Assembly (NCBI RefSeq): GCF_040054535.1
Contig: NC_090785.1
Span: 12,066,501 to 12,130,500, forward strand
Reading direction: 5' to 3'
Source of the DNA: Antennarius striatus
Taxonomy: Eukaryota; Chordata; Actinopteri; Lophiiformes; Antennariidae
DNA length: 64,000 nt
Positions within the stretch are counted from its first letter, which is position 1. Every line of letters begins with the position of its first letter. Below the pieces are notes generated by a model. The model was not told where the DNA came from, made no database searches, and worked only from the letters and a program-made list of their open reading frames with translations. Shown here one piece after another: positions 22,633-62,454 of this stretch. The translations under genes were made by a program, and so were the position numbers.

Positions 22633-24538
<1,906 letters not shown>

Positions 24539-39800: not shown

Positions 39801-39903
39801 CACCAAAATTCCCGAACAAATAATGGAAAACACAAGAAACCGATCAGTCTGCAACGATAGTTTTTCAAGGTTTTAAAACTATTAGCCAGTATGATACATT
39901 GCG

Positions 39904-39937
<34 letters not shown>

Positions 39938-40070
39938 GTGTGTGTGTGTGGACACTGTCGACCTGTGGGTTGTGCCTCTGTAGCTCGTCTGCTGCTGAAT
40001 GGAAGCCGTGGTCTTTCAAATGGCGGTAGATCAATTGGATTAGCTCGTGCTTTGATGCGTTGACGGACAT
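33818..40070 (-). CDS. tcof1: LisH and lysine-rich nucleolar protein, treacle-like
   Basis: Eleven coding exons: 40070-39963, 38836-38784, 38697-38621, 38039-37963, 37845-37681, 36403-36307, 36225-36176, 36074-35906, 35273-34149, 34069-33960 and 33850-33818. They give 687 residues with matching phases. Exons 1 and 2 form a LisH motif (ELIQLIYRHLKDHGFHSAAD, then ATLLDIYSSWF), resembling the treacle N-terminus (ELLPLIYHHL and VTLLDIYTHW). An acidic-serine patch follows (EDSDSDSSLDVEKWKKLL). A 1.1-kb exon is rich in Lys and Glu with repeated KKKKK nuclear/nucleolar signals. Treacle is a nucleolar scaffold for RNA polymerase I transcription and rRNA modification. Against this, the many Ser/Glu repeat units of mammalian treacle (about 1,490 residues) are missing. 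NOLC1 is less likely because its conserved SRP40 C-terminal domain is absent. The neighbour tmco6 supports tcof1. Confidence 0.65.
36805..37340. mobile_element. Foldback MITE, Tc1/mariner-like, in a tcof1 intron
   Basis: The element begins CAGTGCCTTGCGAAAG and ends with its exact reverse complement, each end flanked by TA. Inverted repeat arms extend for about 200 bases per side with few mismatches, around a unique centre of about 100 bases. No coding capacity is visible. It splits a wider dispersed repeat: the left flank (GCTGGAGCCTATCCCAGTT) and the right flank (CCAGCTCATCGCAGGGCCAC) are parts of a repeat common in fish genomes. Confidence 0.8.
37343..37530 (+). repeat. Dispersed teleost repeat interrupted by the foldback MITE
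   Basis: The stretch contains CATCGCAGGGCCACATGG and GGGAGGAAGCCGGAGAACCT followed by GAGAACCCACG, phrases I recall from a high-copy fish repeat. The left half lies just before 36800. Related fragments occur at about 52745-52830 and 58150-58240. Confidence 0.5.
38086..38110. repeat. (CAA)n microsatellite beside a tcof1 exon
   Basis: About eight CAA units on the plus strand read as (TTG)n in the tcof1 transcript, about 45 bases ahead of the exon that starts at 38039. They form part of a T-rich acceptor region. Confidence 0.85.
38148..38518 (-). mobile_element. tRNA-headed SINE in a tcof1 intron
   Basis: Read on the minus strand, the head gives A box TGGCTCAGCAGTAGAGCA (38508-38491) and B box GGTTCAAATCC (38456-38446). 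A body with GAGGCGCCCTTGAGCAAGGC follows, and the tail ends in GATTAAA-type units. It is in the same orientation as the tcof1 transcript. It shares its head type with the SINE at 15291 but has a different body. Confidence 0.75.
39197..39690 (-). mobile_element. 5'-truncated RTE-like LINE tail in tcof1 intron 1
   Basis: A 143-codon frame (39658-39227) encodes the end of a reverse transcriptase: [20 protein letters not shown], the linker RRPRG, and a C-terminus ending LIRCGDP. The 3' end is a (GAA)n-type microsatellite tail. It is nearly identical to the end of the larger copy at 54240-57365. 5' truncation is usual for target-primed LINE insertion. Confidence 0.85.
39905..39950. repeat. (TG)n microsatellite next to the tcof1 exon 1 donor
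   Basis: About 22 TG units with one TGCG break. On the transcribed strand this is a CA repeat that begins about 12 bases inside intron 1 of the tcof1-like gene. Confidence 0.95.
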
Positions 40071-40639
40071 ACCGACACAATAAAATGTCAACACGTATAG
40101 AGGCAAAGGCGACAAAACGACGGTACGTCGTTATTAACGCAGCTCTCGTAACGCAGACTCAACGCTCCGAAAGTAAAGCAAGCATGTAGCCACGTTGAAC
40201 TTTCAACTCAGGATATCGTTCTGTGTGCCACTGCAATGCATTATGGGAGTTGTAGTGCTTGCGTTAAAGTGACGGTCGTTTACCGTACTTGTTAATTTTC
40301 TGTATCTGTCACTCTGTGAAAATGGTAATTTTGAAGTAATACGGCACAGTTATCGATGTGTTACTGCACTGCAACTTTATTGTTGCAGGTCATAATTAAA
40401 AATTTAATCTTTAAAATGTATTTTTTTAAGTGACAATATTCACATGGGAGAGTTACACACTAACCGGTTCCAAGATGATTTTATTTATTGCACATAAACT
40501 ACCTGGCACGATTTGATTAACTTTGAATGACGGATTGGACATTTAGTGATGAAAGGACAAAAACAGTTCGAGTGAAAAGAAAAAATATTTTCTACAACTT
40601 TCTACATAAATAAATAAATAGATAAAAAAATTATATACC
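40071..40639. other. tcof1 promoter side, no gene seen
   Basis: The sequence just upstream of the tcof1-like ATG is CG-richer (for example GTACGTCGTTATTAACGCAG) and is the likely promoter. Farther right it becomes AT-rich, with TAAA units near 40605-40625, up to the LINE. Confidence 0.4.
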
Positions 40640-42951
40640 GAACAAATACCGAAGCTAAGTTGTCAAGTACCTTCAGAAGATGTGAATGCTGCAATAAGAA
40701 CCATCCCCACAGGGAACACAACTGAGACCAACAAGCTGATCCACAGTACAGCAACAGTAATCCTCGAGATGCTGGGATATAAGATCAACACAGGGCATAA
40801 CAAACAATACCCTCCATGGAAGAGACGGTTAAAGGCCAAGATAACGGAGAGAAGTCAGCCAGCTAGCCGAGCTACAGAAGGGGAACATGGTGAATAAAGG
40901 GGTACCCAGGAAATACAGCAAGCTCTCCATACCTGAAGCACTCGAAACTGCCAAACAGAGACTAAAGGCTCTGGCTAACCGACTGAAGAGATACACCAAG
41001 GAGATTGAGGCCAGGAGAATAAACAAGACCTTCTCCACTCAACCAGCAAAGGTGTACTCTCAGTGCACGGAAATAGCATCCGGCCAGACCCACAAAGAGC
41101 TGAGGTGGAGAAATACTGGAAGGGCATATGGGAAAGAGAAGCATCACACCACACCGATGCCCAGTGGCTAGTGGACCTGAGGACTGACCACAGCTGCCTC
41201 CCAGAACAAGAACCAGTAACCATCTCAATGGAAGACATCCAAGAAAGAGTGTCAAAGATGAAGAGTTGGTCAGCACCGGGCCCGGATATGATCCATACAT
41301 ACTGGCTAAAGAAGCTGACAGCACTCCATGAGCGTCTAGCAGCACAGATGAACCAGCTGCTAAGGGATGGGACGCACCCAGAATGGTTGACTGAAGGCAG
41401 GACAGTCCTGATCATGAAAGACCCACAGAAGGAATCTACCCCATCCAACTACCGGCCAATAAGCTGTCTCAGTACAACATGGAAGCTCCCGTCAGGCATC
41501 ATGGCGGCTAAGATGAGTAGGCATCATGGATCAATATATGAGCGGGGCTCAGAAAAGAGTTGGTAGTAACACCAGGGGAGCCAAGCAACAGCTACTGGTG
41601 GACAGAGCAGTACACAGAGACTGTAAGAATAGGCAGACCAACTTGTGCACCGCCTGGATTGACTACCAGAAAGCCTACGACTCAATGCCACACACGTGGA
41701 TACTGGAATGTCTGGAACTGTATAAGATCAACAGGACAATAAGAGCCTTCATCAAGAACTCAATGGGGAAGTGGAAGACAACCCTGGAGACTAACTCCAA
41801 GCCAATTGCCCAAGTTAACATCAAGTGCGGCATATACCAAGGGGATGCGCTATCACCACTGCTGTTCTGCATAGGCCTGAACCCACTCAGTCACATCATC
41901 ACAAAGAGTGGCTACGGATACCGATTCAGATACCCCGCTGGGATCATAAGCGGGCCAAAGGAGGAGATAGAAGCCACAGACATCAAGACGAGAAAGCTCC
42001 TCACCATGCATGGAGGGTTTCACCCCAAGTCCAGCATCCTGAGGCTGTACACTAAGCGGAAAGAGGGAGGCCGAGGATTAGTGAGCATCAGGGGCACTGT
42101 CCAGGATGAGACATCAAAAATCCAAGAGTACATCAGGAAGATGGTCCCAACAGATGAACTGCCCAGTGAATGCCTTAGACAGCAGAAACCTGAGGAGGAA
42201 GAGGAGGAGACAACATGGAGGGACAAGCCCCTACACAGCATGTACCACCGTCAGATAGAGGAAGTGGCTGATATCAAGAAGACCTACCAATGGCTGAATA
42301 AAGCTGGACTGACAGACAGCACAGAGGCACTGATCATGGCAGCACAAGAACAGGCCCTAAGTACAAGAGCAATAGAGGCCAATATCTACCACAGTAGATC
42401 TGACCCAAGATGCAGGCTATGTAAAGAAGCCCCAGAGTCGGTCCAGCACGTGGTAGCAGGGTGTAAGATGCTCGCCAGCTCAGCATACATGGAAAGGCAC
42501 AACCAAGTAGCTGTGATAGTGTACAGGAACATCTGTACCCAGTACGGACTAGAAGTACCCAAATCCCAATGGGACATATCACCGAAGGGGGTTGAGAACG
42601 ACAAGGCTAAGATCCTGTGGGACTTCAGCTTCCAGACCGACAAACAGCTGCTGGCTAACAAACCGGACATAGTGGTGATGGACAAAGAGCAGAAGAGAGC
42701 AGTAGTGATAGATGTGGCGATTCCAGCTGACGTCAACATCAGGAAGAAGGAACACGAAAAGATTGACAAGTATCAAGGGTTGAAAGAACAGCTGGAACAG
42801 ATGTGGAAGATCAAGGTTAATGTGGTCCCTGTGGTAGTAGGAGCACTTGGGGCAGTGACCCCCAAACTGGAAGAGTGGCTCCAGCAGATTCCTGGAACAA
42901 CATCTGAAGCCTCAGTCCAGAAGAGCGCAGTACTAGGAACAGTAGGAACAG

Positions 42952-43049
<98 letters not shown>

Positions 43050-43057
43050 TATATAAA
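40640..43057 (+). mobile_element. LINE with restriction-like endonuclease (R2/R4 group, Rex6/Dong-like)
   Basis: Open frames at 41063-41566 and 41526-43067 encode reverse transcriptase blocks (SAPGPDMIHTYWLKKL, SNYRPISCLST, AWIDYQKAYDSMPHTWI, GIYQGDALSPLLFCIGLNPL). A C-terminal CCHC-type knuckle follows (CRLCKEAPESVQHVVAGC), then a PD-(D/E)xK-like endonuclease (KPDIVVMDKEQKRAVVIDVAI). That order is typical of elements with a restriction-like endonuclease. The 5' end is truncated and the first part has frame breaks. The palm block with the catalytic Asp pair is missing: the text jumps from SGYGYRFR to YPAGIISGPKEEIEATDIKT without breaking the frame. The element ends in (TA)n, as family members often end in short tandem repeats. 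It cannot be active as it stands. Confidence 0.8.
42952..43047. repeat. (TA)n microsatellite, LINE 3' tail
   Basis: About 47 TA units with a single TG variant follow directly on the LINE reading frame and artificially extend its translation as alternating Tyr-Ile. Confidence 0.95.
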
Positions 43058-45369
43058 AAGTATATAAAAAGTCCTACTTTTTAAGATATCTCAACTCCTC
43101 AGGTATTCAATGAAATGCTCAACATATCATCAGGTAAGCTATGGGACCTTCAAATAATATCTGAGAACTTCTGTATAAAAGACTGCTCCAAATGTGAACG
43201 TTGTGTTGCCAACATCACTTCAGTGGCCCACCTCTGTGACAAACTGCCATGATGGATCTGGCTGTACCAGGAAAGAGAAAGAGTTGAAGACGGTCTTTCA
43301 AGACACAGAACTCATTTTACATAACAAACTAAATTGAGACAGGATTATAGTTGAATACATTTGAAGCTTGATATCCAGTTTTATTGAAAGACTTTACACT
43401 GTGTTATAACTTAATAGTTTTATTGCCGTCTGGACGGCAGTCAGATGTAGTTTCTGGGTTGTGTGAATGGGTGTGATCGTCAAAGCCTTAACTGGTTTGT
43501 CAAATCAAAAAGACATTTTTAAAAATTTATGTCTGGTGATATGTATTTAGTCAGTTAAATTGAGGAAACCAATTGCCCTATACAAGTTTAGTTCTGCGAA
43601 TTTAATACAAACTCATAACTGTGTTATAACTTTATAGTTTTGTTGGTAATATTTTTGTTCTGTTTCTTGTTAATTAATACAGAGGTCATGGTATGTAAGT
43701 GTAATCCTGTTGTTTGTACACAGGGTGGAGCACTACGCTAGGAACACAGGTGATTTAGGACAGGTGCCGGTGTTGAACGGCAGCTGTGTGAACCTGGACA
43801 AGAATACAGTTTTTTGAGCGTGTGTGGTAGCAGGAAGGTTTGTGTAAAGAGTTTTGGATTGCGTCGGGATCTAAACGGTTAAATGGATACTTACCTGTGA
43901 CGGACTCAAGATAAAAACTTGGTTGAGATGAACTATGAGCATGTGACGATTTTCCCTGTGTAAAGCTGAGCACACGAGAAAATAAATGGGTCAAGCACTC
44001 AAAGACATTTGCCGCACTGGACATTGGTTTGTCGTTGCCAGAACACGCGTCCGAAGTTCTCCCCGTTTGCCCCTCAGTGGCACGTAAATGTAACGAGTTT
44101 TTATTGAAAGACTTTACACTGTGTTATAACTTAATAGTTTTATTAGGTTGAATGCTTAACACCGTAAATCACCCCAGACCAGGCCACAGGTCTGGACATC
44201 TCATCGCCAACTAATTGGCCCAAAGGCGTTGGTGTAGTTAGAGCCGAGTCACGCGTCAGCGCGGACTCGGCTGGTGAGCCGCCCGATCCCTGTTTAACCA
44301 GTTTGTTTCGGACGGTTTAGTTTCCCTATCAGGTGAACCCGATGACGAGTGCCCAGTGCGTATTTTGCGTGTCACTGCTTGTTCACAATCTGTTATCCTT
44401 GCTAATGTGTTGCCGTTTTCTGAGACGTCTGCTTGTGGTTACAGTGCTGTTTTACGTGGTATTGAGATGGGTTATGTTCCGCGTCCTGTGGTGTCTCACG
44501 ACCACCTGTGTGTGTAATAGTGTGTAACAGTGAGTAGGTACTAATATGTAATAGTGTATAATAGATGATAATAGGGTGTAATAGCTTGTAGCTGAATATT
44601 GAAATGCTAAAGTAAATATCACAACATGGTCAGGCAAAATGGATTAGATAAAGCAGAATTTAGATAAAGACGAGATAGGATTTGGGTTAAGAAAAAGCAA
44701 AACATAATAATAGTCCAAGATTTTAGAAATGCTGTTATGGTACAAATGGTACAAATGCTAAAGCATACATGTGCATATGTGTTGATTGATGTACATTAGG
44801 AAGATTGAACTGTTTAATTGGTGATATGGTCTTAGTTTGTATAAAGACAACTGAACAAATATGATAGGAATGTTTATTACTTTAACTGATTTTGGATTTA
44901 TCACAGTGTAAGAACATGGTAGTGATGATTAATTTTTATTTCATTGTTTTTATATGTTATTTGAAAACAAAACAATGTTATTTTGATTGTTTATTCATTC
45001 CAGGAGTTTGTTTATTGCAATATGACTATGTAGGCAATGATATCTGTTTAGATCGCAAATGTCTAGATCTGTACATGCGAAAATGGATTGGTTTGGTCTG
45101 CGACCAGACTACAGAGTTTCGCGGGGTTTGGTGAAAAAAAAAGAAAGGAAGGAGAGCGAGAGAGAGACGAAGAAGTTGGCGAGCGTCAGATGGACGGATG
45201 AAAAATTAATAAAACTATACACCTGGATTAAGAAAACGGCATCGCTCATTGGTGATTTTAATTACCCCCTTCTTCCGGAGTGTAACATGTGCTGCGCAAA
45301 GAGCGGACCCGATGCTACAGAAATGCTTCTCAGGTGTGGTGAGTGCCGACAAAGGAAAGGGTACAAAGG
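43058..45369. other. Unresolved repeat-like stretch left of the LTR element
   Basis: This stretch has no recognisable host gene. It has a GC-richer block (44160-44300), a run of near-repeats based on GTAATAG (44510-44590) and a long AT-rich section. It may include the worn 5' part of the LTR element that follows, but I could not find a match to the 3' LTR here. Confidence 0.35.
43379..44144 (+). repeat. Pair of direct repeats 720 bases apart
   Basis: A segment of about 46 bases, including TTATTGAAAGACTTTACACT and then GTGTTATAACTTAATAG, occurs at about 43379-43424 and again at 44099-44144. A weaker relative (CTGTGTTATAACTTTATAG) lies at about 43618-43636. The first copy is followed by a perfect palindrome (GCCGTCTGGACGGC, about 43425-43438). 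This could be a tandem duplication or the edges of an unrecognised element. Confidence 0.7.
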
Positions 45370-48285
45370 TGGCTCATTTACTCGATGGTGAAATTTTAAT
45401 GCATAAATGGTCCCCTTCCCCCTCTGACGCAGAATGGAGTGATATATATCAGATGTTCCTTCAGTGTACCGTTCACATGTGCCGTGTGTGACACTTGACA
45501 GCGGTTTGGACATTTGGGTATGACTAAAACATACCAACAAATTCTGAAACATTTCTTTTGGCCTGGTTTAAAATCTGATGTTGCCAAATACTGCCGCTCC
45601 TGTCACATCTGCCAAATTTCAGGAAAACCAAACTAACCCATTCCTCCTGCTCCTTTGCACCCCATACCCGTTCTGTTGTAGGAGAACCATTCGAACGAAT
45701 AATAGTAGATTGTGTCGGACCTTTACCCAGAACAAAAAGTGGAAACCAGTTTTTACTGACCGTTATGTGCGCCGCCACTCGTTTCCCCGAGGCCATCCCG
45801 CTGCGTAATATCACAGCCAGATCCGTAGTCAAAGCCTTAACATGGTTCTTTTCCACATTCGGCCTTCCTCGTGTTATTCAGACGCAGACCAAGGCACCAA
45901 ATCCAACCTGTTCAAGGAGGTGCTGACCACTTTAAAGGTGCAACATGTAGTCTCCAGCCCGTACCATCCTGAATCTCAGGGCACGTTAGAACGCTGGCAC
46001 CAGACGTTAAAGTCGATGCTTTGTAAATATTGTTTGGAGACCGCAAATTGTTAGGATGAAGGAGTCCCCCGACCAGTCCGATGATGTAGCTGTGCGCGCC
46101 TCCACCCATCAAAGCCCCCGTCTGTCAAACTTGGAAATGTTAATGGTATTGGCGGATCACTTATCCCACCTGTCACCTGAGCAACAGGTTGACATAACGG
46201 AGTTAACAAAACGATACTCTTGTCTGTTTGGTGACGTTCCATCCCGGACTACTGTCACACTGCATGACATTGACGTTGGTGATGCTCGGCCGATCAAACA
46301 ACACCCGTACCGTGTAAACGCCGCTAAGCGTGCAATAATGAACAGAGAGGCTGAGTATTTGTTAGAAAATGGTTTAGCCGTCCACAGCTCCATTCCCTGG
46401 AGTTCTCCGTGTCTTCTGGACACTAAGCCCGACGGTTCACCTCGTTTCATTACGGACTACCGAAAAGTAAACGCTGTTACTGTTCCTGACTCCTATCCGT
46501 TACCGAGGATGGAAGATTGTGTGGATACTGTGGGTTCAGCAAAGTTCATGAGCAAATTACATTTGCTCAAAGGCTACTGGCAGGTGCCGCTAACCAAGCG
46601 TGCATCTTTGATTTCCGCTTTTGTAACTCCCGACTATTTCTTGAAATACACCGTCATGGCCTTCGGTATGTGTAACGCACCGGCCACCTTTCAGCGTCTC
46701 ATTAACACCGTGCTGGCAGGTTTACCACGTTGTAGTGCATATTTGGACGATCTTATTGTGCACACCTCCACGTGGGAGGAGCACATCCAGACCTTGGAAC
46801 AGGTGTTCGCACGTCTCGCCAACGCATCCCTCACCAGAAATTTGGCTAAATGTGAGATCGGTAAGGCTACTGTCACCTACTTGGGGAGACAAGTAGGCCA
46901 GGGACAGGTGCGACCCGTAGAGGTCGCACCTGTGCCATCCACCAGGATTGTGCCATCCACCAGGAGAGCCCTACGCCGCTTTCTGGGCATAGCTAGTTAC
47001 TACCACAGCTTCTGTCGAAATTTTCCACCGTGGTGAGACCACTAACCAACCTCCTTAGCCCAAAAGTTGAATTTGTGTCGTCCCCAGAGTGTCAGACTGC
47101 TTTTGAAAGTGTAAAATCACTTTTGTGCTACTCTCCCGTGCTCGCTGCGCCTGACCTCTCTTGACCCTTTAAATTGGAGGTTGATGCCAGTGGGGTGGGA
47201 CCTGGTACTGTTCTGCTGCAGGAGGATGGGGAGGGAGTAGATCACCCAATCTCGGTACTTTTCACGAAAATTCAACAAGTACCAGGTCAACTACTCCACC
47301 ATCGAACAAGATACCCCAGCTTTATTGTTGGTACTCCAGCACTTAGAAGTTTACCTCGGGTCCAGTTCGTTGCCAGTTAGTGTTCACGGATCATAACCCA
47401 CTCACCTTTCTATTCCACATGTATAACCACAATCAGCGTCTCATGCGGTGGGCACTGGTCGTTCAGGACTACAACCTGAACATTCAACATAAAAAGGGGT
47501 CTGAGAATGTGTTGGCTGATGCTCTGTCCAGACAGCAAGTATGGTGTTTGTATTTTGTGAGTTGTGAATTGAAATAAATAAATAAAGGGGTGTTTGTGGT
47601 AAGTATGCTTTGAGTTTAGATGGGTAATTTTGATATGTAACCCAGTTGGGTTCCAATTTTAAGGGGGGGAGTGTTACGGCCGTAGCTCATCTGTTCATAT
47701 TCTGTATCCCTCTGCAACCCTGCCTCTGAGCTGCTGGCCCTGCTCTGGGATGCTCCGCCCTCCATCATCAGAGCCAAGGGGTGTGGTGTCTCTGGGACTC
47801 TTGGCCACGCCCATCTCCTGATAGGTGTGCAGTCTCCTTGATTAGCCCAAGCCCTGCTTCGTCACCTGGAATGGACAGCTTAAAATCTCTGCAATGCCAT
47901 TCAAGTGGGGCGACTGTCTGACTGTGGCAGCACACCTTTGAGAGCAACATCGAACTGTGACCTTATGACTTGTGACCGTGTGAGTTGTGACCTTGTGATT
48001 CGGCTTTTGTGATTTTGATGTACACCCTCGTTAAAGAGCTGGTTGTGTTTTTTGGTCCATTTAGTAAATTTGTGTAAGTGAAGTTAGCATTTTAGAATCT
48101 CTTAGAGTCCTAAGTTTAATGCATTTTTGTTAGTTAAATAGCACCCATTGGCCTTTGTTAATTAAAAGTACAATCTTAGTTAAACCTTTGTATTTAAAGT
48201 GAGAATTTGAAAATAAATGTTTTATGTTTCCCCTTTTTCTATCCTAGTTATGTTATTTCCCCAGTCCTCTAGCTGGGTCGTAACA
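45370..48285 (+). mobile_element. Broken Ty3/gypsy-type LTR retrotransposon, fossil
   Basis: Recognisable parts, in order: an integrase-like region (about 45490-46030), a reverse transcriptase region (about 46060-47035), an RNase H region (about 47170-47550), a purine-rich tract (about 47661-47671) and one LTR (47672-48285). Integrase coming before reverse transcriptase is unusual for Ty3/gypsy and fits the Gmr1-like group first described from cod. The element is broken in several places. The left LTR was not recognised, so the 5' limit is uncertain and no age from LTR divergence can be given. The wear suggests an old but not ancient insertion. Confidence 0.75.
47672..48285 (+). repeat. LTR (3') of the gypsy-type fossil
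   Basis: It starts TGTTACGG and ends GGGTCGTAACA, so the terminal TGTTACG and CGTAACA are perfect inverted repeats, as expected for an LTR of 614 bases. A polypurine tract (AAGGGGGGGAG) lies immediately to the left. An AATAAA sits in the right half, near 48210. Confidence 0.85.
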
Positions 48286-50303: not shown

Positions 50304-53300
50304 ATGATGACAACCAGTGAATTTCTCCAGCAAATAATCCAATATCCTGAGAAATTAAACAGTTTAGTGTGTGAAGCAAAAGAGTGTGCTTTTCAACATG
50401 GGAATATTACACGCATTAATGAGACGCCCACTTCATCAGAGGTAAAGGCACACAGTCACATCTGTCAAATTTGTTTTTGCTCCATAGTTTCTTTTAAAGT
50501 CTGGCATGAAATTTAAATTTCCATAAAAACCTTGGGTTTCAAAACTCAAATGTTTACAACAAAACATATCAGTGCAGGACTGACGCCATTGCCTATTCAT
50601 TTATGATACTGTTATCTCTCCAGAGATAGGGAAAACAGTGGAAATAAGACTTTGAGTCTAAGAGAGGTTCTGTTTGAGGTTCTGTGCACTTTGGAGTTGG
50701 TGTTCGACAGGGAAGCATAGATGCAATACACTGGGATAAATCTACCAAGATGGCATATTCTACTTTACAGGCTGACTGTGGTCCCTGACTAATCTAAGTA
50801 CTGGTAGTCCTCAAGATTACGAAGAACTGATTTATGAACATTTGTAGACACGAACAACCACACACTATCATGTTTGACTACTGTAGTTACCCTTTCTGCT
50901 GCATCCCACGCCAAGCAGAGTGACATTAACACACCATAGATTAAATTAAGATTTCAAGTCATGTCAAAATAACTCGGCAAATATCAGCCCAAGTGAACAA
51001 TTTCCTCTGATGTTAGACTTCAAGTGGTCTTTCCGACTTTCGTCTTTCATCTGCAGCGGTTTGTCCTTTTATGCACATTTCTGTGAACTTCTGAACGGGA
51101 AACAAACCCACAATGTACTTATGTGAATGGAGACGTACACCGATATTGAGACTGTAGACAATTTAGGTCAGGCTGACAGTTTGAGACACCAATCTAGAAT
51201 GCAGACTACCTGTAAGAAAATTCTGTCACAACCTGCTGCTAGTTCACTTTTCTTTCTTAAAATATTGAAGAGGTTGTTCCTCTGTAGGAGCTATAAGATG
51301 TAGGTGTGTGTGTGTGTGACCTACAACTTCTACTGGACCTTTCTCTGCTTAGAGATGTGGAAGGTGACTGGGTCAGCTCTGGAGTGCACCTGCAAGCCAG
51401 ATAGTCTTTATAGAACTCTAAAGCTACAGATCCTAATTGCTACTGGCTCAATCAATAGTAGCGCAAGTTTATTCTGCTCTTGGTAAAACTGCACCGCAAG
51501 AAACGGTTTGGCAAACTTTACAGCAGAATTTGTGAATGACATTCATCATCTGTTGTGTTTTTAGGCTGTGACCTACCTTCCATTCACACTTTTCCCTTCT
51601 CCAATGCCAAAAGCCATCATCCTTCAGGCCCTGGCAGTGCAAACTCATTTTAACATACTGGTGGACAAGATCAGCCAGGATCCAGACTTTCTGGAAGAGG
51701 CACTTGCAGGGTACAAGAAGATTCATCATGCTGATTATGAGAAAATTCTGTTTAGGAGAGAACGAAATTCAACAATGCTTCACCACAACAATGTAACGTT
51801 TGATGATTCCCTTTCACGTCACAGGACTATTCAGGTGGATGATTTCACAGCCAACTTATTTGATATATACAAACAAATTCAGCAGGAAGGTTTGACACAG
51901 GTAAGAACATGATTTAAATTGTTAGATAATTTAAATTGTATAGACAAGCTGACCTTGAAACAGTATATTTGCTGAAGATAGATTCTTGTGGCTGCTAGTC
52001 TGTGTATCCCTTTGTTACCAGTTTGTCATTGTCCTGTTACTGTATTTAGTTCCTGTGATTCCTCCTGATAGCTCATCTGTGTTGCCATGTTTTTGCCCAT
52101 GTCCTCTCCTTGAGCTTTGTAATAAGTAATCTGCGATTTTTGTTCATTTGATTTTGGACTATGTACAATTCATTCATTCTTAGGATTTATAAAATGAAAT
52201 GAAATTTTGTTTCTTTTATTAAGTTTTTTGTGTTTACTATTGAACTGCACTTATGTCTCCGTCCCCTATTTGTGTTTGGAACCCATTTTCGTATTGCTGT
52301 CCATGTTGGTCCCTGCATACAGGAGACTCTGTTAAATTGCTACACGCACTCCTCAAAAGTTCAGGAGAACTTATTGAGATGTCTTGATAAACCACTGATA
52401 CTGAGTTTTCAACCAGCATGGCTTAGAGGTGTTTTTTTTAAATTTAAATTTCCTAGCTGTTTGTCTCAAGGAAAAGCAAGGGAACAATTTAAAAAATCCA
52501 TTCCTGGCCTATCCCCAAGTTGGAGACCTACGAGACATCCTGGATAGCCAGCCAGCTCTGTCTGCTCCAGCCTGTCTGTGAGCTTACATTCTGCCCAGTT
52601 AGTGGAGAACTTGCTGATTACACCTTCTCTTGACTAGTGCCACAATATACGTACTGTGCAACATGTATGTGCAAGTTATTCTGCATTACTAAAATGTCTG
52701 TTTGCAATGTACTGGAAACAAGTACGGAGTATCTCCCCGCCTCATGCCCATAAGTCCGCTGGGATAGGCTCCAGCAACCCCTGTGACCCACAAAAGCGGA
52801 GGAAGCAGTATGGATGATGAATGGATGAATGAATGAAATGTCATGTTATTCAGGGAAGCTCATAGCTCACTGATGAATGCTAAATAAACTAAAAGATAAA
52901 CACAGATTTACGTGAGTATCATCAATCAATTATCACCATGTTCATTTGCTGTTACATAAGCTGATTCCTGCACTTGAGTATGCAGTAGTTGATCATGTGA
53001 GTGAAGTTGGAATTTCTGAATAGTGTATATTTTCAGTCAATCGCCGTGGGTCTGAACCGTATTGACTACATGGTGGACCACAGGGAGGATGGACCTTCAC
53101 CCCTGAAACAAGTAGAGATAAACACTATTGCTGCTGGTGGTTTATATGTGTCCGACTGTCTCCCTGTAGTGCACAGGTACTTGAGAACATTTAACACTCT
53201 TTTTCCTCAGTTTAACAAATGAATGGGATGTTTAGCAAGTTCCCAGAAGAATAGAAATATTGTGTCATACATTCTAATTTAAAATAGTTGATCATGCTCA

Positions 53301-56300
53301 TGGCACATTTTGTAAAATGTAATTTTTAGTTTTGGGAAAAGTGAGGGTGTCTCTGATTTTTCAGGCACATTTTGAGATCAGCTGGTCTTTTGGAAGAGAG
53401 CAAGTATGTCCAGGATAGAAACAATTCTCCTGGAATGTGTGCCGCACTTGCCAAGGGCTGGGAACTCTATGGCCAACAGAAGTAAGTGCGGTCATAATGG
53501 GCGTCAAAATAATAAATAATCAGCAGGGTTGGGTTAACTTTGATATGATAATGATATGATTTCTGGAACCCATAACTGGTAGCTAATTATAACCTCTTTC
53601 AGTATGTTACAGTATTAGTAGTAACTAAAAATAGTAATATGTGAAAATGTAGAACTAACTGAAAGGGGGAGATATACTGTATTGCCCTGTCTACCCTTCC
53701 TTGTCCAGAATAAAATAATCTCAGCCTTGAAGATATACTGTACATTATTTGACTTGGCCAAGCAAGACATGTTACCGGTATTGTTTTGTATGTTTGCATA
53801 TTGGTCTATTTGCAGAATTACTCAAAAACTACACTCAGACTTTAATGAAACCGAGAAGAATGGTTGGGTGTGTGATAAGGAAATTATGTGTGTAATCAGT
53901 TTGAATAAAAATCTAATGTTTTTACATTTCAAGATAAAGCTGGAGGTTTTATCTTTTTTAGTTGGACAGTAAGGAGGGGGAGACTGATCTACACAGGTTG
54001 GCAAGACAAAGAGACATACAGTAGATGGGAAGGACGTGCAGCAGGTTAGGGTGGTTAAGAGGAGGTTTATGGATTTAGTGAAAGAGGATATGAAGGTAGT
54101 TGGTGTGAGAAAAGAGGATACAGACAATGGGGTTAGATGGGGGCAATTGATTCGCTGTGGCGACCCCTGAAGGGAAAAGCTGAAAAGAAAAGAAGATTCT
54201 TGATCTTGTAGAAATTTAAACGCGTTCTTCTTGACCATACACTCTTCTTCTTCTTCTTTTTCTTTCGGCTTTTCCCTTCAGGGGTCGCCACAGCGAATCA
54301 ATTGCCTCCATCTAGCCCTGTCCTTTGAATCCTCTTCTCTCACAGCAGGTACCTTCATGTCTTCCCTCATTACATCCATGAACCTCCTCTTTGGTCTTCC
54401 TCTAGGCCTCCTGCCTGGCAGTTCAAAACTCAGCATCCTTCTACCAATATATTCACTGTCTCTCCTCTGGACATGTCCAAACCATCTCAGTCTGGCCTCT
54501 CTGACTTTATCTCCAAAACTTTTAAAATGTGCTGTCCCTCTGATGTACTCATTCCTGATCCTATCCTTCCTGGTCACTCCCAAAGAGAACCTCAGCATCT
54601 TCATCTCTGCTACCTCCAGCTCTGCCTCCTGTCTTTTCCTCAGTGACACTGTCTCTAGACCAAACAACATCGCTGGTCTCACCACAGTTTTGTACACCTT
54701 TCCTTTCATTTTAGCTGAAACTCTTCTATCACACATCACACCTGACACTTTCCTCCACCCATTCCATCCTGCCTGTACACGCTTCTTCACCTCTTTTCCA
54801 CACTCTCCATTGCTCTGGACTGTTGACCCTAAATACTTAAAATCCTCCACCTTCTTGATCTCTTCTCCCTGTAACCTCACTCTTCCACTTGGGTCCTTCT
54901 CATTCACACACATGTATTCTGTCTTACTACGGCTAAACTTCATTCCTCTCCTTTCCAGGACAAACCTCCACCTCTCTAGCTTCTCCTCCACCTGTTCCCT
55001 GCTCTCACTGCAGATCACAATGTCATCTGCAAACATCATAGTCCATGGAGATTCCTGTCTAACCTCGTCTGTCAGCCTGTCCATCACCATAGCAAACAAG
55101 AAGGGGCTCAGAGCTGATCCCTGACACAGTCCCACCTCCACCTTGAACTCCTCTGTCACACCTACCACACCTCACCACTGTCTTACAGTCCTCATGCATG
55201 TCCTGCACTGCTCTAACATCTCTGCCACTCCAGACTTCCTCATACAATACCACAGTTCCTCTCTAGGCACCCTGTCATAAGCTTTCTCCAGATCTACAAA
55301 AACACAATGCAGCTCCCTCTGGCCTTCTCTGTACTTCTCTATCAACCTCCTCAAAGCAAATACTGCATCTGTAGTACTCTTTTTTGGCATGAAACCATAC
55401 TGCTGCTCACAAATGTTCACTTCTGCCCTTAGTCTAGCTTCCACTACTCTTTCCCATAACTTCATTGTATGGCTCATCAGCTTTATTCCTCTGTAGTTGC
55501 CACAACTCTGCACATCTCCCTTGTTCTTAAAAATGGGCACCAGCACTCTTCTCCTCCATTCCTCAGGCATCTTCTCACTATCTAAGATCCTGTTGAACAA
55601 CCCAGTCAGAAACTCTACTGCCACCTCTCCTAGACACTTCCAAACCTCTACAGGTATATCATCGGGACCGACTGCCTTTCCACTCTTCATCCTCTTCAGT
55701 GCCCTCCTCACTTCATCTGCACTAATCTTTGCTACATCCTGGTCCACAACAGTCACCTCTTCTAGTCTTTGTTCTCTCTCATTTTCCACGTTCATCAACT
55801 CTTCAAAGTACTCTTTCCATCCACCCATCACACTACTGGCACCTGTCAATAGGCTTCCATCCCTATCCTTAATCACCCTAACCTGCTGCACGTCCTTCCA
55901 TCTCTATCTCTCTGTCTTGCCAACCTGTATAGATCAGTCTCTCCCTCCTTGCTGTCCAACCTAGCATACAAGTCATCATAAGCTTCTTGTTTGGCCTTTG
56001 CTACCTCTACCGTCACCTTACGCTGCATCTCCCTGTACTCCTGTCTGCTCTCCTCAGTCCTCTGTTTCCCACTTCCTCTTAGCTAACCTCTGTCTCTGTA
56101 TACACTCCTGTACCTCCTCATTCCACCACCAAGTCTCCTTATCTACTTTCCTTCCAGATGACACACCAAGTACTCTCTTACCTGTCTCCCTGATCACATT
56201 AGCTATTGTTTTCCAGTCATCTGGAAGCACCTCCTTGCCACTTGTCTCAACTCCTTCCTAAAAGTCATGCAACACTCTTCCTTTTTCAGCTTCCACCATT

Positions 56301-59300
56301 TCGTTTTCTGCTCTGCCTTTGCCCTCTTCATCTTCCTCACCACCAGAGTCATCCTAGACACCACCATCCTATGCTGTTTGGCTACACTCTCGCCTACCAC
56401 TACTTTGCAGTCACTGATCTCCTTCAGATAACACCATCTACACAAGATGTAGTCTACCTGTGTGCTCCTACCTCCGCTCTCATAGGTCACCCTATGTTCC
56501 TGCCTCTTCTGGAAGAAAGTATTCACTATAGCCATTTCCATCCTTTTTGCAAATTCAACTACCATCTGTCCTTCTGCGTTCCTCTCCTGGATACCAAACC
56601 TGCCCATCACCTCCTCATCACTTCTGTTTCCTGCACCAACGTGTCCATTGAAGTCTGCACCAATGACAACTCTCTCACTTCTCGGTATGCTCTACATTAC
56701 TTCAGCAAAGTCCAGCCAGAACTTCTCCTTCACCTCCAGCTCGCATTCTACCTGTGGAGCATACCCACTAACGACATTGAACATCACACCTTCGATTTGT
56801 AGCTTCAGACTCATCACTCTATCTGACACTCTTTTTACCTCCAGGACATTCCTAACAAACTCCTCCTTCAAGATAACTCCTACTCCATTTTTCCCCTATC
56901 TACACCATGATAGAACAACTTGAACCCTGCTCCTAAACTTCTAGCCTTGCTACCTTTCCACCTGGTCCCCTGGACACACAGTATGTCTACCTTCCTTCTC
57001 TGCATCATGTCAACCAACTCTAGCTTTTCCTGTCATAGTTCCAAAATTCAATGTCCCTACTCTCAGTCCTACACTCTTGGCGTTCCTCTCCTCTCTCTTC
57101 CTACGAACACACTTTCCTCCTCTCTTTGTTCAACTGACAGTCGTTCAATTTCCACCGGCACCCTGTAGGTCAACAGCACCGATGGCGGTTATTGTTAACT
57201 CAGGCATCGACCGATCCGATATGGAAGTCATAGGTTTGATTCGCGTGTTTGATTTGGCAAAAGTTTTACGTCGAACACCCTTCCTGATGCAACCCTCTGT
57301 ATTTATCCGGGCTTGGGACAGGTGCAATAAGACACTGGCTTGTGTCCTATTGTGGCTACATTGTACAAGATCAAGGAGAAAATTGCCATTAGTGAACTAT
57401 CATTAAAATAATAATTCCAAATGATTTGAAATTCTGAGGAATTTTCATGGCGAAGGGGTTGTGTAATGACGCTCAAACCATCATGTGAAAATAATTCTCA
57501 GGTACAGTCATAAGTACGTTAGTGATGTCTACAGATATGAAAATCATTATACAAAGAAACTATCTTTGTATAACGATTATTGTCTGAACATACAACTCTA
57601 AAACATTAATTTTAGTTTTTGTGAGGAAAGATATTTGTTGATAAAGTTTTTCACCAAATGATGAAAAATTAATAAATAAGAAATTTTCTCCGCAGAGCCG
57701 TAATCCTCTTCCTGGTCGAGAGTCATGCACAGATCAACAAACTCAATCACCGTGTAATGGAGAAAAATCTCTGGGACAGGTAATACAAAAAAAATTTCAA
57801 CCCTGACTTAGAAGGACTGATACTTATTGGAGATTAGGAGATATATAGCATAAGAACTGAAAGTTGGAGTCCATGAATCTACAACATTTTCTGAAAGTCA
57901 TAAAGTTTGATTGTGTGTACTTGGGTGTTAATATTTCAGTCTGATCCATAGCCACATTCACACTTTTGGCCTGGTTTCTTCTAAGAAGAATTTCAGTTTT
58001 ATCTTTGTGGACAAAATTATTACACCTCCCAATTGTTGATTTGTTCTGTGGAATTTATTCTGCTCTTGTATGTGATTACGTTCTAGTCTGTTTGTATGGT
58101 TGGGAAAATGTACATGGTCAAATAATGTTCATTCTTTCATCCATTCATTCATTGTAATGGCTTCCTCCACTGTTGTGGGTTGTGGGATTGCTGGAGCCTA
58201 TTACAGCGGACTTCAGGCGTAAGGCAGGGTATGCTTGGGGCGCAACACCAGTGCACTGCAGATCAAATAATGCTTTGATATAATCTTAGATCATGCATGT
58301 GTTGACAAGAACTAACCCCAGAATAAAGCACACACATTTTATTTTAGCAGCAACCATGGTGTGGGATTAAGGGCACTTTAAGATGTAGATTGCATATGCC
58401 AGGGGTTGAATGACTAACCCATGTAACCAATCCATCTGGAAAAATTTTTCTCTTTATGCGTAGGAATATTCCTGTTATCCGCAGAAAATTTGAGGATGTG
58501 TACAGGAGAGGATCTCTTCATGATGACAGAAGATTTTTTATGTCAGTATAAATTTATTTGTAATAACTGAATAATATGGTCCTTTATTCATCCCGCTATG
58601 GGGAAATTCACAAATAGTAAAAAGTTGATAGCATTCTTTGATTTATTAATTCTTAATAAAGTGACTGTCCTAAAATGTTAAACTAATTTCATAGCAGAAA
58701 CAAATATTAAGTTTAATTTGTTTTAGGGGGTATGATTTTTTTTTTGTAGCTGTTTTGGAATGCATCATACTCAATTCTACATTCCTGGGTGAATGAAAAT
58801 TGTCAAAAATATTGCCTTCTAGATATCAAAAGAAAAGACTTATGGCTTCTAATTAATCAAGATCTACTAGTCATTTTAACTAATGCTTCCTTTGTTTAAT
58901 ATTGTTTATTTATTCATTTAGTCTTTTTTGTTATTTAGTCATTTTTGGTTGTCTTGTTTTTTGTATATGCCGTGTTTATGCTAAGTTACATTAAAGTTAA
59001 CTTCATCATTAAATGTAACCAACAGAGATGGCCAGGAGGTGGCTGTTGTGTACTACCGCTATGGCTACATGCCAAATAACTATACTGAAGAGGTAAGAAA
59101 ATAATAATCCTTTGTTTAAATTTTGTCTTATATTTACTGCATCTATTTTTTTTACCCACAATGAAACATCAATGTTGTTTCATCAACAACAAATAAGATG
59201 ACAGTACAGGAAGTTATGATAAAGTGCCTGGTAAATACAAAGGGGCAAAAGGTATTTTCTTCTCATGGAAATGCTAAGAAAAAAGAATGTCTCCAGTTAT

Positions 59301-62300
59301 TAATCATTTCTAAAACAATTCCTGTATGTTTTAGTCTTGGGATGCTCGTCTTATGATGGAGCGCTCTCTGGCTGTGAAATGTCCTGACATTGGCACCCAC
59401 CTGGCTGGAACCAAGAAGGTCCAACAGGTACTTGCCAGACCTGGAGTTTTGGAAAGATTCTTTCCAGATCAGCCTCAAGTAGTGGAGCAGATAAGAGCCA
59501 CCTTTGTTGGCCTCTACACTCTTGACATGGTGAGAAAAATGACAGAATCTGCAAGTTGCTCCAATGGTTTTATATTTGAATTTGTGTCTAATGATATCTT
59601 AGACAGCACTGAGTGTCAAACTGTTTCATTGTAATGATGTAACAATCAGTTTTCCTTCCTTGTTTTGTTCTCATTGTCTTTAGGGCCCAGAGGGTGACAA
59701 AACCGTAGAGATGGCTTTGGCAGCTCCAGAACGGTTTGTGTTGAAGCCTCAGAGGGAGGGAGGAGGTACTGTATCTATGAATACATATCCATGCAGAATT
59801 TCCTGAAACCATTGTCATACTGATCACCATTTCTTGAACCACAATAATTACAAATGTCTAGAACTCAGTGTATGCCACAGATAAGAGTTGTGTATCAAGT
59901 TACAAGTATCTTGAATGTGCATGTCATGATGGCAGTCTTGAGAAAGTTTTGGCCAAATGACACAACTTTCTTGTCAAAAATGTTAATGTTTTTTAAGTGT
60001 TGCAACTATTTTTTTTTCATGTGTAATCCTACTACGCAGCACACGCACTTCTTGCACAAAGTGATTATCCTTTACAGAGTTCTTATAATGGACCACAGCA
60101 CATAAAGACAGCATAGAGTTTAAAAGTTAACGATGAAGGACTTTTTAATGCATTTGAGCCATAAACATGACTCAAAGAGATCCAAATAAACATGCAGAAT
60201 CCTCCATGCTTCATTACAGCATATGCCATTTTTTTAGGTAACAACATCTATGGATCAGCGATTTCTGAGGTCTTACAAAGACTGAAGGACAGTCCAGAGA
60301 GGATGGCCTACATTCTCATGGATAAGATCCAACCCTTCATTGTAAAAAATATCCTGCTGAAACGCAGTGCCCCTCTCCAAATCAGCGACTGTGTCAGTGA
60401 ACTGGGAGTATTGGGAGCATATGTCAGGTATGTATTTCATATTCATCTTATGTATCTGTGCCGGCAAAAGGTATTTTATTTTCAAATGATCTTCTTACTC
60501 AGTTACATTGTTATGAATACAATATCTTAGTAATTCCTTTTGACATTTCAAATTCCTCCTTGGCTAAAGAATTACATATTTTTACATGTAATTTAAGACC
60601 TATCCTGGCTGTCCGAGACAAGCAGCTGCACGTAGAAGCAGGGCTACAGCAAACAGACAATTTACAACTTGCACTGCTTCTTATCATTTTGATTGTGGAT
60701 CAACCATGAGCTATGTGTCTTATACAAAACCACCTCAGCTACCTCCGAATCCACTCAGTGTGAAGGAGCAGCGGTTTTATTCCAAGTTCCTCCGTGATGA
60801 CTGAGCCTCTCACCCCATCTCTAATACTGCGCCAAACCACCCTCCTGAGGAAACTCATTTTGACTGCTTGTTTGGGACATTGTCTTTTCGGTCATGACCA
60901 TAGGTTAGAGTAGGAAAGTAGACTGACAGGTAAGTCAAGAGCTTCGTCTTTTGGCTTAGCTCCTTCTTCACCATGAGAGACCTACACAAGGACTGCAGCA
61001 ATACAGCAGCTGCATCAATCTCTCTGTCAGTCTCACACTCCATCCGTCCCTCTCTCTTAAACAGATGATGGATGGATGGACAGATAGACAAATAGACAGA
61101 TAGTTTATTAATCCCAGAGGAAATTGAATATATCCACTGCTCATATATATTCATACATATTCCACAGACAGCACAGCAGACATAAATGCACATAAATAAA
61201 TACTAGACACTAGATAAACATGCAAAGAGAAAAACATCTACTCTACTAAACGCAGACAGAGAAAAACATGGAAAATACAGACCATATACTACACTACCGA
61301 ACAGTGTAAAAAAAGATTCAACTAAACAAGTAAAAGTACAAAAAGTAGAAAACTCCAGAGAGCAAGGGGGCCCACGTGGAGGGCAAGGCATATCCCTCTT
61401 AGATTGAAGAAAAGTCATTGTCCCAGTTTCAGCATAAACATCCTGGTTTTCCCACAGTGTAGCTCGACCTATCTCCTCCCCTCCATGCATCTACTTGCTG
61501 CCAAACCTTGTCAACCCCACCCTTCTACCCCTGAGAGATTTATTGTGCCTCCTAATGCCACGGGGCACAAAGGAGGACCTCAATCTCTCTGTTTAGGTAT
61601 TCAGTCTACCTCAAGGTGTTCCTCTGCTGGCAGAAAGCAGTATGCAGGGGTTTTCTCTGGTTTCGCTGGTTTTCTCCATGATTACCGTGGTTTGGAACAT
61701 GGTCCCACTTTCCAGAACTGTCTCCAGAGTCCAGGCACTGTGGATGAGTTGGTTAAGGTGTTCCATGTCCCTTTTCCTGGCTCTACCACCCCAACCCACA
61801 ATGGCATAGGACAGCACAAGACTTCAATACACATAACTCCTCCACCTGGGAGAAAGGCTCACCACTGATCCGAATAAGGTGGGCCAACTTCTCCAATCAT
61901 GGGTCAGGGAGTTCCTCTGCAACCTCCTTCAGTTCACCACCATGGCATGTACACGAACACTTCTGGATCCCAATGTGCATATGTTTCGTCTCATGTCGTT
62001 TGCAGCTGAGGGGTTGCAAACAACATTTCATATATTTCTACATTTCTCGCAAAACAGTCCAAAAGTAAAATCTCATGTTTCTCAGTGGAATTATGCAAAT
62101 TATGATACTTTACATTTTAATAGAATCTGCAGTAATTACTTTTTGCTGTCCCACAACAGAAATGACAGAAATATAATCATCTCAGCTTTAAAAATTCATA
62201 ATTATAAATTGGGATAAAAAAGCGTACACTTACCTGACTAGATATTCTTATGAGTTCATTATATTGCTCCCGTGACAAAATTCAAACCTTTTCATTTTTT

Positions 62301-62454
62301 AATTTTTATCTTTGCTTTTGTTTTCTGTAGAAATGCTAAAGACATGGTGATGAACACATGTGTGGGTCATCTGCTGAGAACCAAGAGTTCAGAACATTCA
62401 GATGGAGGCGTAACAGCAGGCGTGTCTGTATTGGACAGTCCTCTCCTGATCTGA
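50304..62454 (+). CDS. gss: Glutathione synthetase (eukaryotic GSS family), divergent
   Basis: Thirteen coding segments: 50304-50441, 51565-51710, 51825-51900, 53037-53176, 53365-53481, 57696-57779, 58464-58541, 59026-59092, 59335-59529, 59684-59765, 60238-60427 and 62331-62454, plus an optional retained piece 51711-51824. They give 478 residues when spliced (human 474). The enzyme joins gamma-glutamylcysteine and glycine with ATP in the cytosol. Kept are PTSSE, the N-R-x-D-Y substrate loop, metal ligands Glu147 and Asn149, the glycine-rich ATP loop [25 protein letters not shown] and the C-terminal AGVSVLD. Changed against human GSS are Ser149 (Ala152 here), Ser151 (Gly154), Glu214 (Gln), Gln220 (His) and Ala462 (Thr), all recalled as substrate contacts. 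It may therefore be a specialised paralogue; the frame itself is whole. The intron at 53482-57695 carries two LINEs. Confidence 0.88.
51711..51824 (+). other. 114-base, stop-free intron within gss (exitron-like)
   Basis: Removing 51711-51824 (GTACAA donor, ACGTCACAG acceptor) joins EEALAG to [14 protein letters not shown], which matches human LSSTIKQDDFTARLFDI without a gap. The removed piece is exactly 38 codons, has no stop in that frame and keeps the frame if retained. The retained peptide is polar and basic and has no counterpart in human GSS. Confidence 0.75.
53961..54197 (+). mobile_element. Internally deleted RTE-like LINE fragment
   Basis: The first 100 bases match (on the other strand) the region at about 55870-55965 of the full copy. 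The text then jumps to the extreme 3' end, encoding [24 protein letters not shown] and the stop. Thus about 1.6 kb of the middle is missing. It points toward the oppositely oriented copy that begins about 45 bases to the right. Confidence 0.75.
54240..57365 (-). mobile_element. Near full-length RTE-like LINE in a gss intron
   Basis: On the minus strand the order is a 5' leader (57365-57180), an APE-type endonuclease region (about 57000-56200, with [12 protein letters not shown]), reverse transcriptase (55891-55172: [43 protein letters not shown]; then 55168-54278: [37 protein letters not shown]) and a C-terminus ending LIRCGDP. The 3' end is a (GAA)n-like tail at about 54240-54260. The catalytic FADD box is present. 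The frame is broken at several places, including between the two reverse transcriptase parts near 55170 and in the endonuclease, so it is dead. It lies antisense to gss. The clade is judged from the C-terminal phrases and the APE domain. Confidence 0.8.
60428..62330. other. gss last intron with unresolved repeats
   Basis: A LINE/SINE-type tail (TTTATTAATCCCAGAGGAAA, about 61103-61122) and a stretch at 61370-61950 that reads like a worn non-coding or ORF remnant on the minus strand suggest an old retroelement. No conserved motif could be named. A GATG/GACA tetranucleotide-rich patch lies at about 61065-61100. Confidence 0.35.

What the first reader, a model, noticed from the sequence alone, without database searches (positions are those of the whole stretch)
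53037..62454. Glutathione synthetase with a remodelled gamma-glutamylcysteine pocket but intact ATP site
Seen: the metal ligands in EINTI, the [10 protein letters not shown] loop and GHLLRT are kept, while the usual ISASFGGL is replaced by IAAGGL with a two-residue extension just after it. By alignment, human Ser149, Ser151, Glu214, Gln220 and Ala462 become Ala, Gly, Gln, His and Thr. Known: those human positions are, from memory, contacts to the dipeptide substrate. Inferred: selection kept the ATP-grasp machinery while the acceptor-substrate side changed, as expected for a paralogue with a new peptide substrate or reduced activity, rather than for simple decay, since no stop or frameshift occurs in 478 codons.
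Basis: partly seen in the sequence, partly recalled or inferred. Interest (0 to 1): 0.75.

Follow-up and report, generated by a model that had tools for sequence, protein, structure and literature searches.

The report
Fast-evolving second fish glutathione synthetase gene
This fish-like genome carries an intact, fast-evolving second copy of the gene for the glutathione-making enzyme whose dipeptide-binding loop has changed, but most of the pocket changes first reported are shared by the ordinary copy elsewhere in the genome.

Summary
The gene spans 50304-62454 (the finding starts at exon 4): 12 exons, GT-AG introns, 478 intact codons. Specific to this copy are the lost S151-F152 with a rewritten loop, and a one-residue insertion between 211 and 214. 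The kept-ATP-site contrast is partly a recombination effect: synonymous sites are at or near saturation between the copies in exons 1-8 but not in exons 9-12 (fourfold matches 19/57 vs 59/80, p=4e-6), which suggests old gene conversion. In codons 283-400 dN/dS is about 0.04, so the copy has been under purifying selection there. Most likely a retained, accelerated paralogue, still an ATP-grasp ligase, with altered gamma-Glu-Cys handling. Activity and substrate are untested.

The parts
50304..50441 (+). gss-like exon 1 (start codon at 50304)
   Evidence: spliced model; human-like N-terminal match in tblastn
51565..51710 (+). exon 2
51825..51900 (+). exon 3
53037..53176 (+). exon 4; carries the R125, D127, E144, N146 equivalents and the altered loop
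53130..53162 (+). altered loop: [11 protein letters not shown] where the C2 copy has AASFGGLASRT; S151 and F152 lost
53365..53481 (+). exon 5
57696..57779 (+). exon 6; E211, Q214, N216, H220 equivalents
57721..57726 (+). place of the window-only one-residue insertion between human 211 and 214 (which of the two codons is extra is not determined)
   Evidence: alignment A1
58464..58541 (+). exon 7
59026..59092 (+). exon 8; R267, Y270 equivalents kept
59335..59529 (+). exon 9; 96.9% amino-acid identity to the C2 copy, start of the low-dS tract
59684..59765 (+). exon 10; KPQREGGG loop, identical in protein to the C2 copy
60238..60427 (+). exon 11; low divergence to about 60314 (codon 400), then higher
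62331..62454 (+). exon 12 with R450, K452 equivalents, T462 (62413-62415) and the stop codon

Best explanation
The window holds an old, retained paralogue of eukaryotic glutathione synthetase in a fish-like vertebrate whose ordinary-looking copy lies on another contig (C2). Shown: both copies have intact frames; the window branch is about 2.8 times longer in exons 1-8; synonymous divergence is much lower in exons 9-12; in codons 283-400 amino-acid changes have been removed by selection. Inferred: old ectopic gene conversion of the 3' half; the protein still grasps ATP, as a homodimer or mixed dimer, and still positions a cysteinyl dipeptide (R125, N216, R267, Y270 and R450 kept), but the lost S151-F152 and the 211-214 insertion alter how the gamma-glutamyl end is held, giving lower or different gamma-Glu-X use, perhaps in a restricted tissue or condition.
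For: Second gss at C2:8694122-8673073 minus, 12 exons, 476 codons intact; all 21 matches listed for the C2 query and 22 of 23 for the window query lie at these two loci, the other at C17 with E=0.74. Tree of exons 1-8: window and C2 sisters, bootstrap 96, branches 0.58 and 0.21; relative-rate counts 51 vs 22, chi2 11.5. Synonymous difference pS 0.64-0.92 by exon in exons 1-8 against 0.33-0.49 in exons 9-12; fourfold matches 19/57 vs 59/80, Fisher p 3.9e-6. Codons 283-400: dS 0.48, dN 0.019, omega 0.039 (bootstrap 0.006-0.099); 3 amino-acid differences, where a neutral window branch (half the divergence, Jukes-Cantor, started from the C2 sequence) gave a mean of 45 and a minimum of 29 in 2000 runs. 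Residues at human 125, 127, 144, 146, 216, 267, 270, 305, 364, 368, 425, 450, 452 all kept. F or Y at 152 in 46 of 46 other sequences compared (5, 41), G only here.
Against: No expression, structure or activity data, and no other fish GSS to compare. IAAG at 148-151 occurs in 2 of 41 bacterial relatives, and the nematode study says the two serines coordinate Cys through the backbone, with small uncharged replacements in the effectors (PMC5919673, passages), so the loop change might matter little. Selection on the window branch in exons 1-8 cannot be measured because synonymous sites are saturated or nearly so. 6% of neutral runs left the 118-codon tract free of stops, so its open frame alone is weak evidence. 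The conversion reading rests on two sequences: intron flanks support it only around exon 10, while those of exons 9, 11 and 12 are not alike. In the exon 1-8 topology test the alternatives fail AU (0.036, 0.041) but not KH or SH (0.059-0.060); for exons 9-12 one alternative is not rejected (AU 0.35).
Confidence: 0.58

Rival explanations
1. An ordinary second glutathione synthetase: the same reaction with similar specificity, retained for dosage or division of tissues; the loop change is nearly neutral.
For: All catalytic residues checked are kept; three of the five cited pocket changes are in the other copy too; IAAG occurs in 2 of 41 bacterial relatives; Drosophila has Gss1/Gss2 tandem copies that segregate as alleles (PMC6814777, passages).
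Against: F/Y152 lost only here (46 of 46 others keep it); a pocket insertion and D219N; a 2.8-fold longer branch in exons 1-8, which include the dipeptide-side exons.
Confidence: 0.3
2. A partner or regulatory subunit: the enzyme is a dimer, and the paralogue forms mixed dimers with the C2 protein with little activity of its own.
For: Strong purifying selection on the core with a changed pocket would fit; the T. brucei enzyme is dimeric (PMC2845819, passages).
Against: None of the catalytic residues checked is lost; no data on interaction.
Confidence: 0.07
3. A gene in early decay, kept open partly by conversion from the other copy.
For: Accelerated exons 1-8; of 102 columns invariant in four outgroups, 7 are changed only in the window copy and 1 only in C2.
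Against: Open frame and all splice sites kept in exons 1-8 although synonymous sites are at or near saturation; omega about 0.04 in codons 283-400.
Confidence: 0.05

Closest known systems
Human glutathione synthetase (GSS, PDB 2HGS)
   Same: Pfam GSS models match over nearly the full length; 52.3% identical (248 of 474 aligned positions); ATP, metal and R450 residues kept
   Different: A149, G151, G152, E211, Q214, H220, T462 and an insertion between 211 and 214; the genome has a second copy
C2 gss of the same genome
   Same: Same 12 exons and phases; shares A149, E211, Q214, H220; exon 9 96.9% and exon 10 100% protein identity
   Different: Keeps S151-F152-G-G-L and D219, lacks the insertion; shorter branch
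Cyst-nematode GS-like effectors (Gpa-GSS22, Gpa-GSS30; PMC5919673, passages)
   Same: GSS duplicates with a conserved ATP site and a changed dipeptide pocket; small residues replace the two loop serines
   Different: Those are large families, almost all with signal peptides, and GSS22 and GSS30 change all six gamma-Glu contacts; here R267, N216 and Y270 are kept and two copies were found. No secretion signal was looked for here.
Drosophila Gss1/Gss2 (PMC6814777, passages)
   Same: Animal gss duplication
   Different: Tandem and polymorphic there; unlinked and old here
Soybean homoglutathione synthetase (PDB 3KAJ)
   Same: GSS relative with a changed substrate loop
   Different: Its change is at 462-463 (L-P); here 462-463 is T-A

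Membership tests
Eukaryotic glutathione synthase homology family (Pfam PF03917/PF03199) | Both Pfam models over their cut-offs, together covering nearly the whole protein | tested here: met
   PF03917 406 bits (residues 16-477), PF03199 96.7 bits (207-306)
Eukaryotic glutathione synthase homology family (Pfam PF03917/PF03199) | Metal and ATP ligands (human D127, E144, N146, K305, K364, E368, E425, K452) | tested here: met
   all identical; N146 as a metal ligand is recalled
Canonical glutathione synthetase enzyme | Gamma-Glu contacts R267, E214, N216, Y270 and two Gln (taken here as Q211 and Q220, my mapping) | tested here: not met
   N216, R267, Y270 kept; Q211E, E214Q, Q220H changed, the same in the C2 copy
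Canonical glutathione synthetase enzyme | S-x-S-F/Y loop at 149-152 | tested here: not met
   AAGG here, AASF in C2; 149 is A in 12 and 151 is A or G in 7 of 41 bacterial relatives
Canonical glutathione synthetase enzyme | Makes glutathione from gamma-Glu-Cys and Gly | not testable with these tools
   needs an enzyme assay
Nematode GS-like effector | Change of all six gamma-Glu contacts (as in GSS22 and GSS30) | tested here: not met
   three of six kept
Nematode GS-like effector | N-terminal secretion signal | not tested
   no signal-peptide predictor used
Gene-converted paralogue pair | Tract of lowered synonymous divergence between unlinked copies | tested here: met
   fourfold matches 59/80 in exons 9-12, 19/57 in exons 1-8
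Gene-converted paralogue pair | Similarity running on into introns at the tract | tested here: inconclusive
   seen beside exon 10 only; flanks of exons 9, 11 and 12 not alike

The most novel reading that the evidence does not exclude
A vertebrate glutathione synthetase paralogue that has become a different ATP-grasp peptide ligase (a gamma-Glu-X or other dipeptide plus an amino acid), its ATP-grasp exons refreshed by gene conversion from the housekeeping copy while the acceptor side is free to diverge. In addition, the shared E211/Q214/H220 pocket of both copies would mean that this lineage's working glutathione synthetase departs from an arrangement described as conserved for about a billion years.
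Probability: 0.15. Interest if true: 0.7.

Novelty: new variant of a known kind. Interest (0 to 1): 0.42.

Why it matters
Almost all eukaryotes are said to have a single GS gene (PMC5919673, passage). A retained, diverging vertebrate copy beside an ordinary-looking one, with its ATP-grasp exons apparently homogenised by gene conversion, would be a natural test of how a new peptide ligase can arise while the catalytic engine is kept in repair. Both copies also break the Q211/E214/Q220 pattern seen in all 41 bacterial and 4 eukaryotic relatives compared, which asks what that pocket really requires. The T. brucei paper already notes Gln or Glu at 211 in other species, so part of this may be ordinary.

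Tried and rejected
Rejected: only gss in the genome (second copy found). Rejected: the loop as a splice-boundary artefact (it lies inside exon 4, 53037-53176). Rejected: all five changes as window-specific. Considered: origin in a genome duplication. The aldolase query matched C10, C21, C6 and C13; the RNF20/40-like RING matched C10 and C21 strongly and five other places weakly; none was on C2. TRPC4AP (PF12463), a neighbour of human GSS by recall, is on C5. So I found no sign of a duplicated C2-C10 block, but only these few genes were tried; open frames read by eye from 40 kb more around the C2 gene showed mostly retroelement-like frames and a PI3-kinase-like gene (named by eye), which decided nothing. 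Considered: origin of the loop by substitutions, by a 6-base loss plus a 6-base gain, or by compensating frameshifts; two copies cannot decide. A viral-contig search with the window protein found nothing. Paper searches. They gave the T. brucei and Drosophila papers used here and one tilapia paper that names a 'glutathione synthetase-like (gss)' gene on LG20 (PMC6435965, passages); in the listings and passages I saw, none describes a diverged fish gss paralogue or gene conversion of gss. The nematode paper was opened by DOI (abstract) and read in passages.

Full report
What is there. The window is G000:C10:12066501-12130500 of a 548-Mb genome in 42 contigs. A spliced model built by reading splice sites gives 12 exons from 50304 to 62454, all 11 introns GT-AG, 478 codons without stop or frameshift. 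The protein matches Pfam PF03917 at 406 bits and PF03199 at 96.7 bits and is identical to human GSS at 248 of 474 aligned positions, 52.3%. The finding's start, 53037, is the start of exon 4.

Second copy. Pfam PF03199 searched in the same genome gave three matches, one in the window gene and two at a locus on contig C2. The window protein as query gave 23 matches, 22 at these two loci and one at C17 with E=0.74; the C2 protein as query gave 21, all at these two loci. The tool scores only its best candidates, so a third copy is unlikely but not excluded. The C2 gene (8694122 down to 8673073) also has 12 exons, GT-AG introns and 476 intact codons, with one extra residue at the exon 8/9 junction through a weak donor. 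It reads EINTIAASFGGLASRTPYVHR in the loop. It is identical to human at 287 of 474 positions (60.5%) and to the window protein at 322 of 475 (67.8%).

Pocket residues. The T. brucei structure paper (PMC2845819, passages) gives the human contacts: R267, S151, E214, N216 to the glutamyl part, R125 and S149 to cysteine, R450 to glycine, and V461/A462 near the glycyl carboxylate, where main-chain amides bind and 462 varies between species. Gln220 does not occur in that text. The nematode paper (PMC5919673, passages) describes the two serines as coordinating cysteine through the backbone, and six side chains (R, E, two Q, N, Y) as holding the glutamate; that the two Q are human 211 and 220 is my mapping. 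On an alignment of the two fish-like copies with human, potato, soybean and yeast, 102 columns are invariant in the four outgroups. Nine are changed in both copies (S149A, Q211E, E214Q, R215, Q220H, T238, L331I, I423, I428V), seven only in the window copy (L111Q, S126I, S151G, F152G, A195G, L254F, S276T) and one only in C2 (F72Y). In 41 of 42 bacterial relatives (L037 dropped) position 149 is S in 29 and A in 12; 151 is S in 34, A in 5, G in 2; 152 is F in 27 and Y in 14; 211 is Q, 214 E, 216 N, 219 D and 220 Q in all 41; 462 is C 18, S 15, V 6, A 1, gap 1. Many of these bacteria are near kin (SAR324 and relatives), so the counts are not independent. What is particular to the window copy is therefore the loss of F/Y152 with S151, the rewritten stretch to about 159, D219N, S126I, and a one-residue insertion between 211 and 214. 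A swap of Gln and Glu between 211 and 214 is common to both copies; the T. brucei paper notes Gln or Glu at 211 in other species.

Mosaic divergence. Between the two copies, synonymous differences are at or near saturation in exons 1-8 (pS 0.64 to 0.92 by exon, 0.78 overall) but lie at 0.33-0.49 in exons 9-12. Fourfold sites match at 19 of 57 in exons 1-8 and 59 of 80 in exons 9-12 (Fisher p=3.9e-6). Identity drops inside exon 11 near codon 400 and rises again in exon 12. Some intron sequence follows: 20 bases before exon 10 are identical and 56 bases shortly after it are 80% identical. The other printed flanks, those of exons 9, 11 and 12 included, are not alike beyond a few bases. My reading is one or more old ectopic conversions of the 3' half; a partial later duplication grafted onto an older copy would look the same. 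This is inference from two sequences.

Selection and age. In codons 283-400, dS is 0.48 and dN 0.019, omega 0.039 with bootstrap 0.006-0.099, and 3 amino-acid differences are seen where a simulated neutral window branch gave 45 on average and never under 29 in 2000 runs. So since the tract became similar, the window copy has not been free to drift there. Codons 401-478 give omega 0.25. The exon 1-8 tree puts the two copies as sisters after the split from human (bootstrap 96; alternatives AU p 0.036 and 0.041, KH and SH 0.059-0.060), with branches 0.58 (window) and 0.21 (C2). For exons 9-12 the sister grouping has 70% support and one alternative is not rejected (AU 0.35). Relative-rate counts against human are 51 to 22 in exons 1-8 and 12 to 2 in exons 9-12. 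The duplication is therefore old; I could not tie it to a genome duplication.

How it most likely works. Shown: intact gene, conserved catalytic set, purifying selection on part of the core, paralogy. Inferred: an ATP-grasp ligase that phosphorylates the cysteinyl carboxylate of a dipeptide and joins an amino acid (established mechanism of the family, recalled), with a changed grip on the gamma-glutamyl end. Because small residues at 149 and 151 are tolerated elsewhere, plain glutathione synthesis with similar kinetics remains a serious rival (0.30). A wholly new acceptor is possible but unproven (0.15).

Verdict.

Noticed in passing
window 51711-51824: Intron 2 of the gss-like gene is 114 bases, a multiple of three, without an in-frame stop, so its retention would add 38 residues in frame; the matching intron of the C2 copy has stops.
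   Followed up: partly
window 54278-56895, minus strand: A non-LTR-retrotransposon-like stretch with a reverse-transcriptase match (RVT_1 at 55172-55903) sits in intron 5 of the gss-like gene, in several frames.
   Followed up: partly
window 45041-47580, plus strand: An LTR-retroelement-like stretch with a reverse-transcriptase match (RVT_1 at 46011-47036), in several frames.
   Followed up: no
window 41009-43067, plus strand: A long reverse-transcriptase-like open frame ending in a simple TA-rich repeat (named by eye).
   Followed up: no
window 33924-40130, minus strand: Lysine-rich treacle-like gene with a LisH-like start (named by recall only; Pfam gave nothing for 34141-35388).
   Followed up: no
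window 5418-5837 minus; 9293-9508 minus; 23994-24359 plus: Exons with a BRI3BP domain (TMEM109-like by recall), a RING (RNF20/40-like by recall) and an aldolase domain; relatives of the last two were found on C21 and other contigs, none on C2.
   Followed up: partly
C2 gss, L004-L006: The conventional-looking copy also departs from the Q211/E214/Q220 triad that is invariant in the 45 outside sequences compared (it has E/Q/H), so the altered glutamyl pocket is common to both copies.
   Followed up: yes
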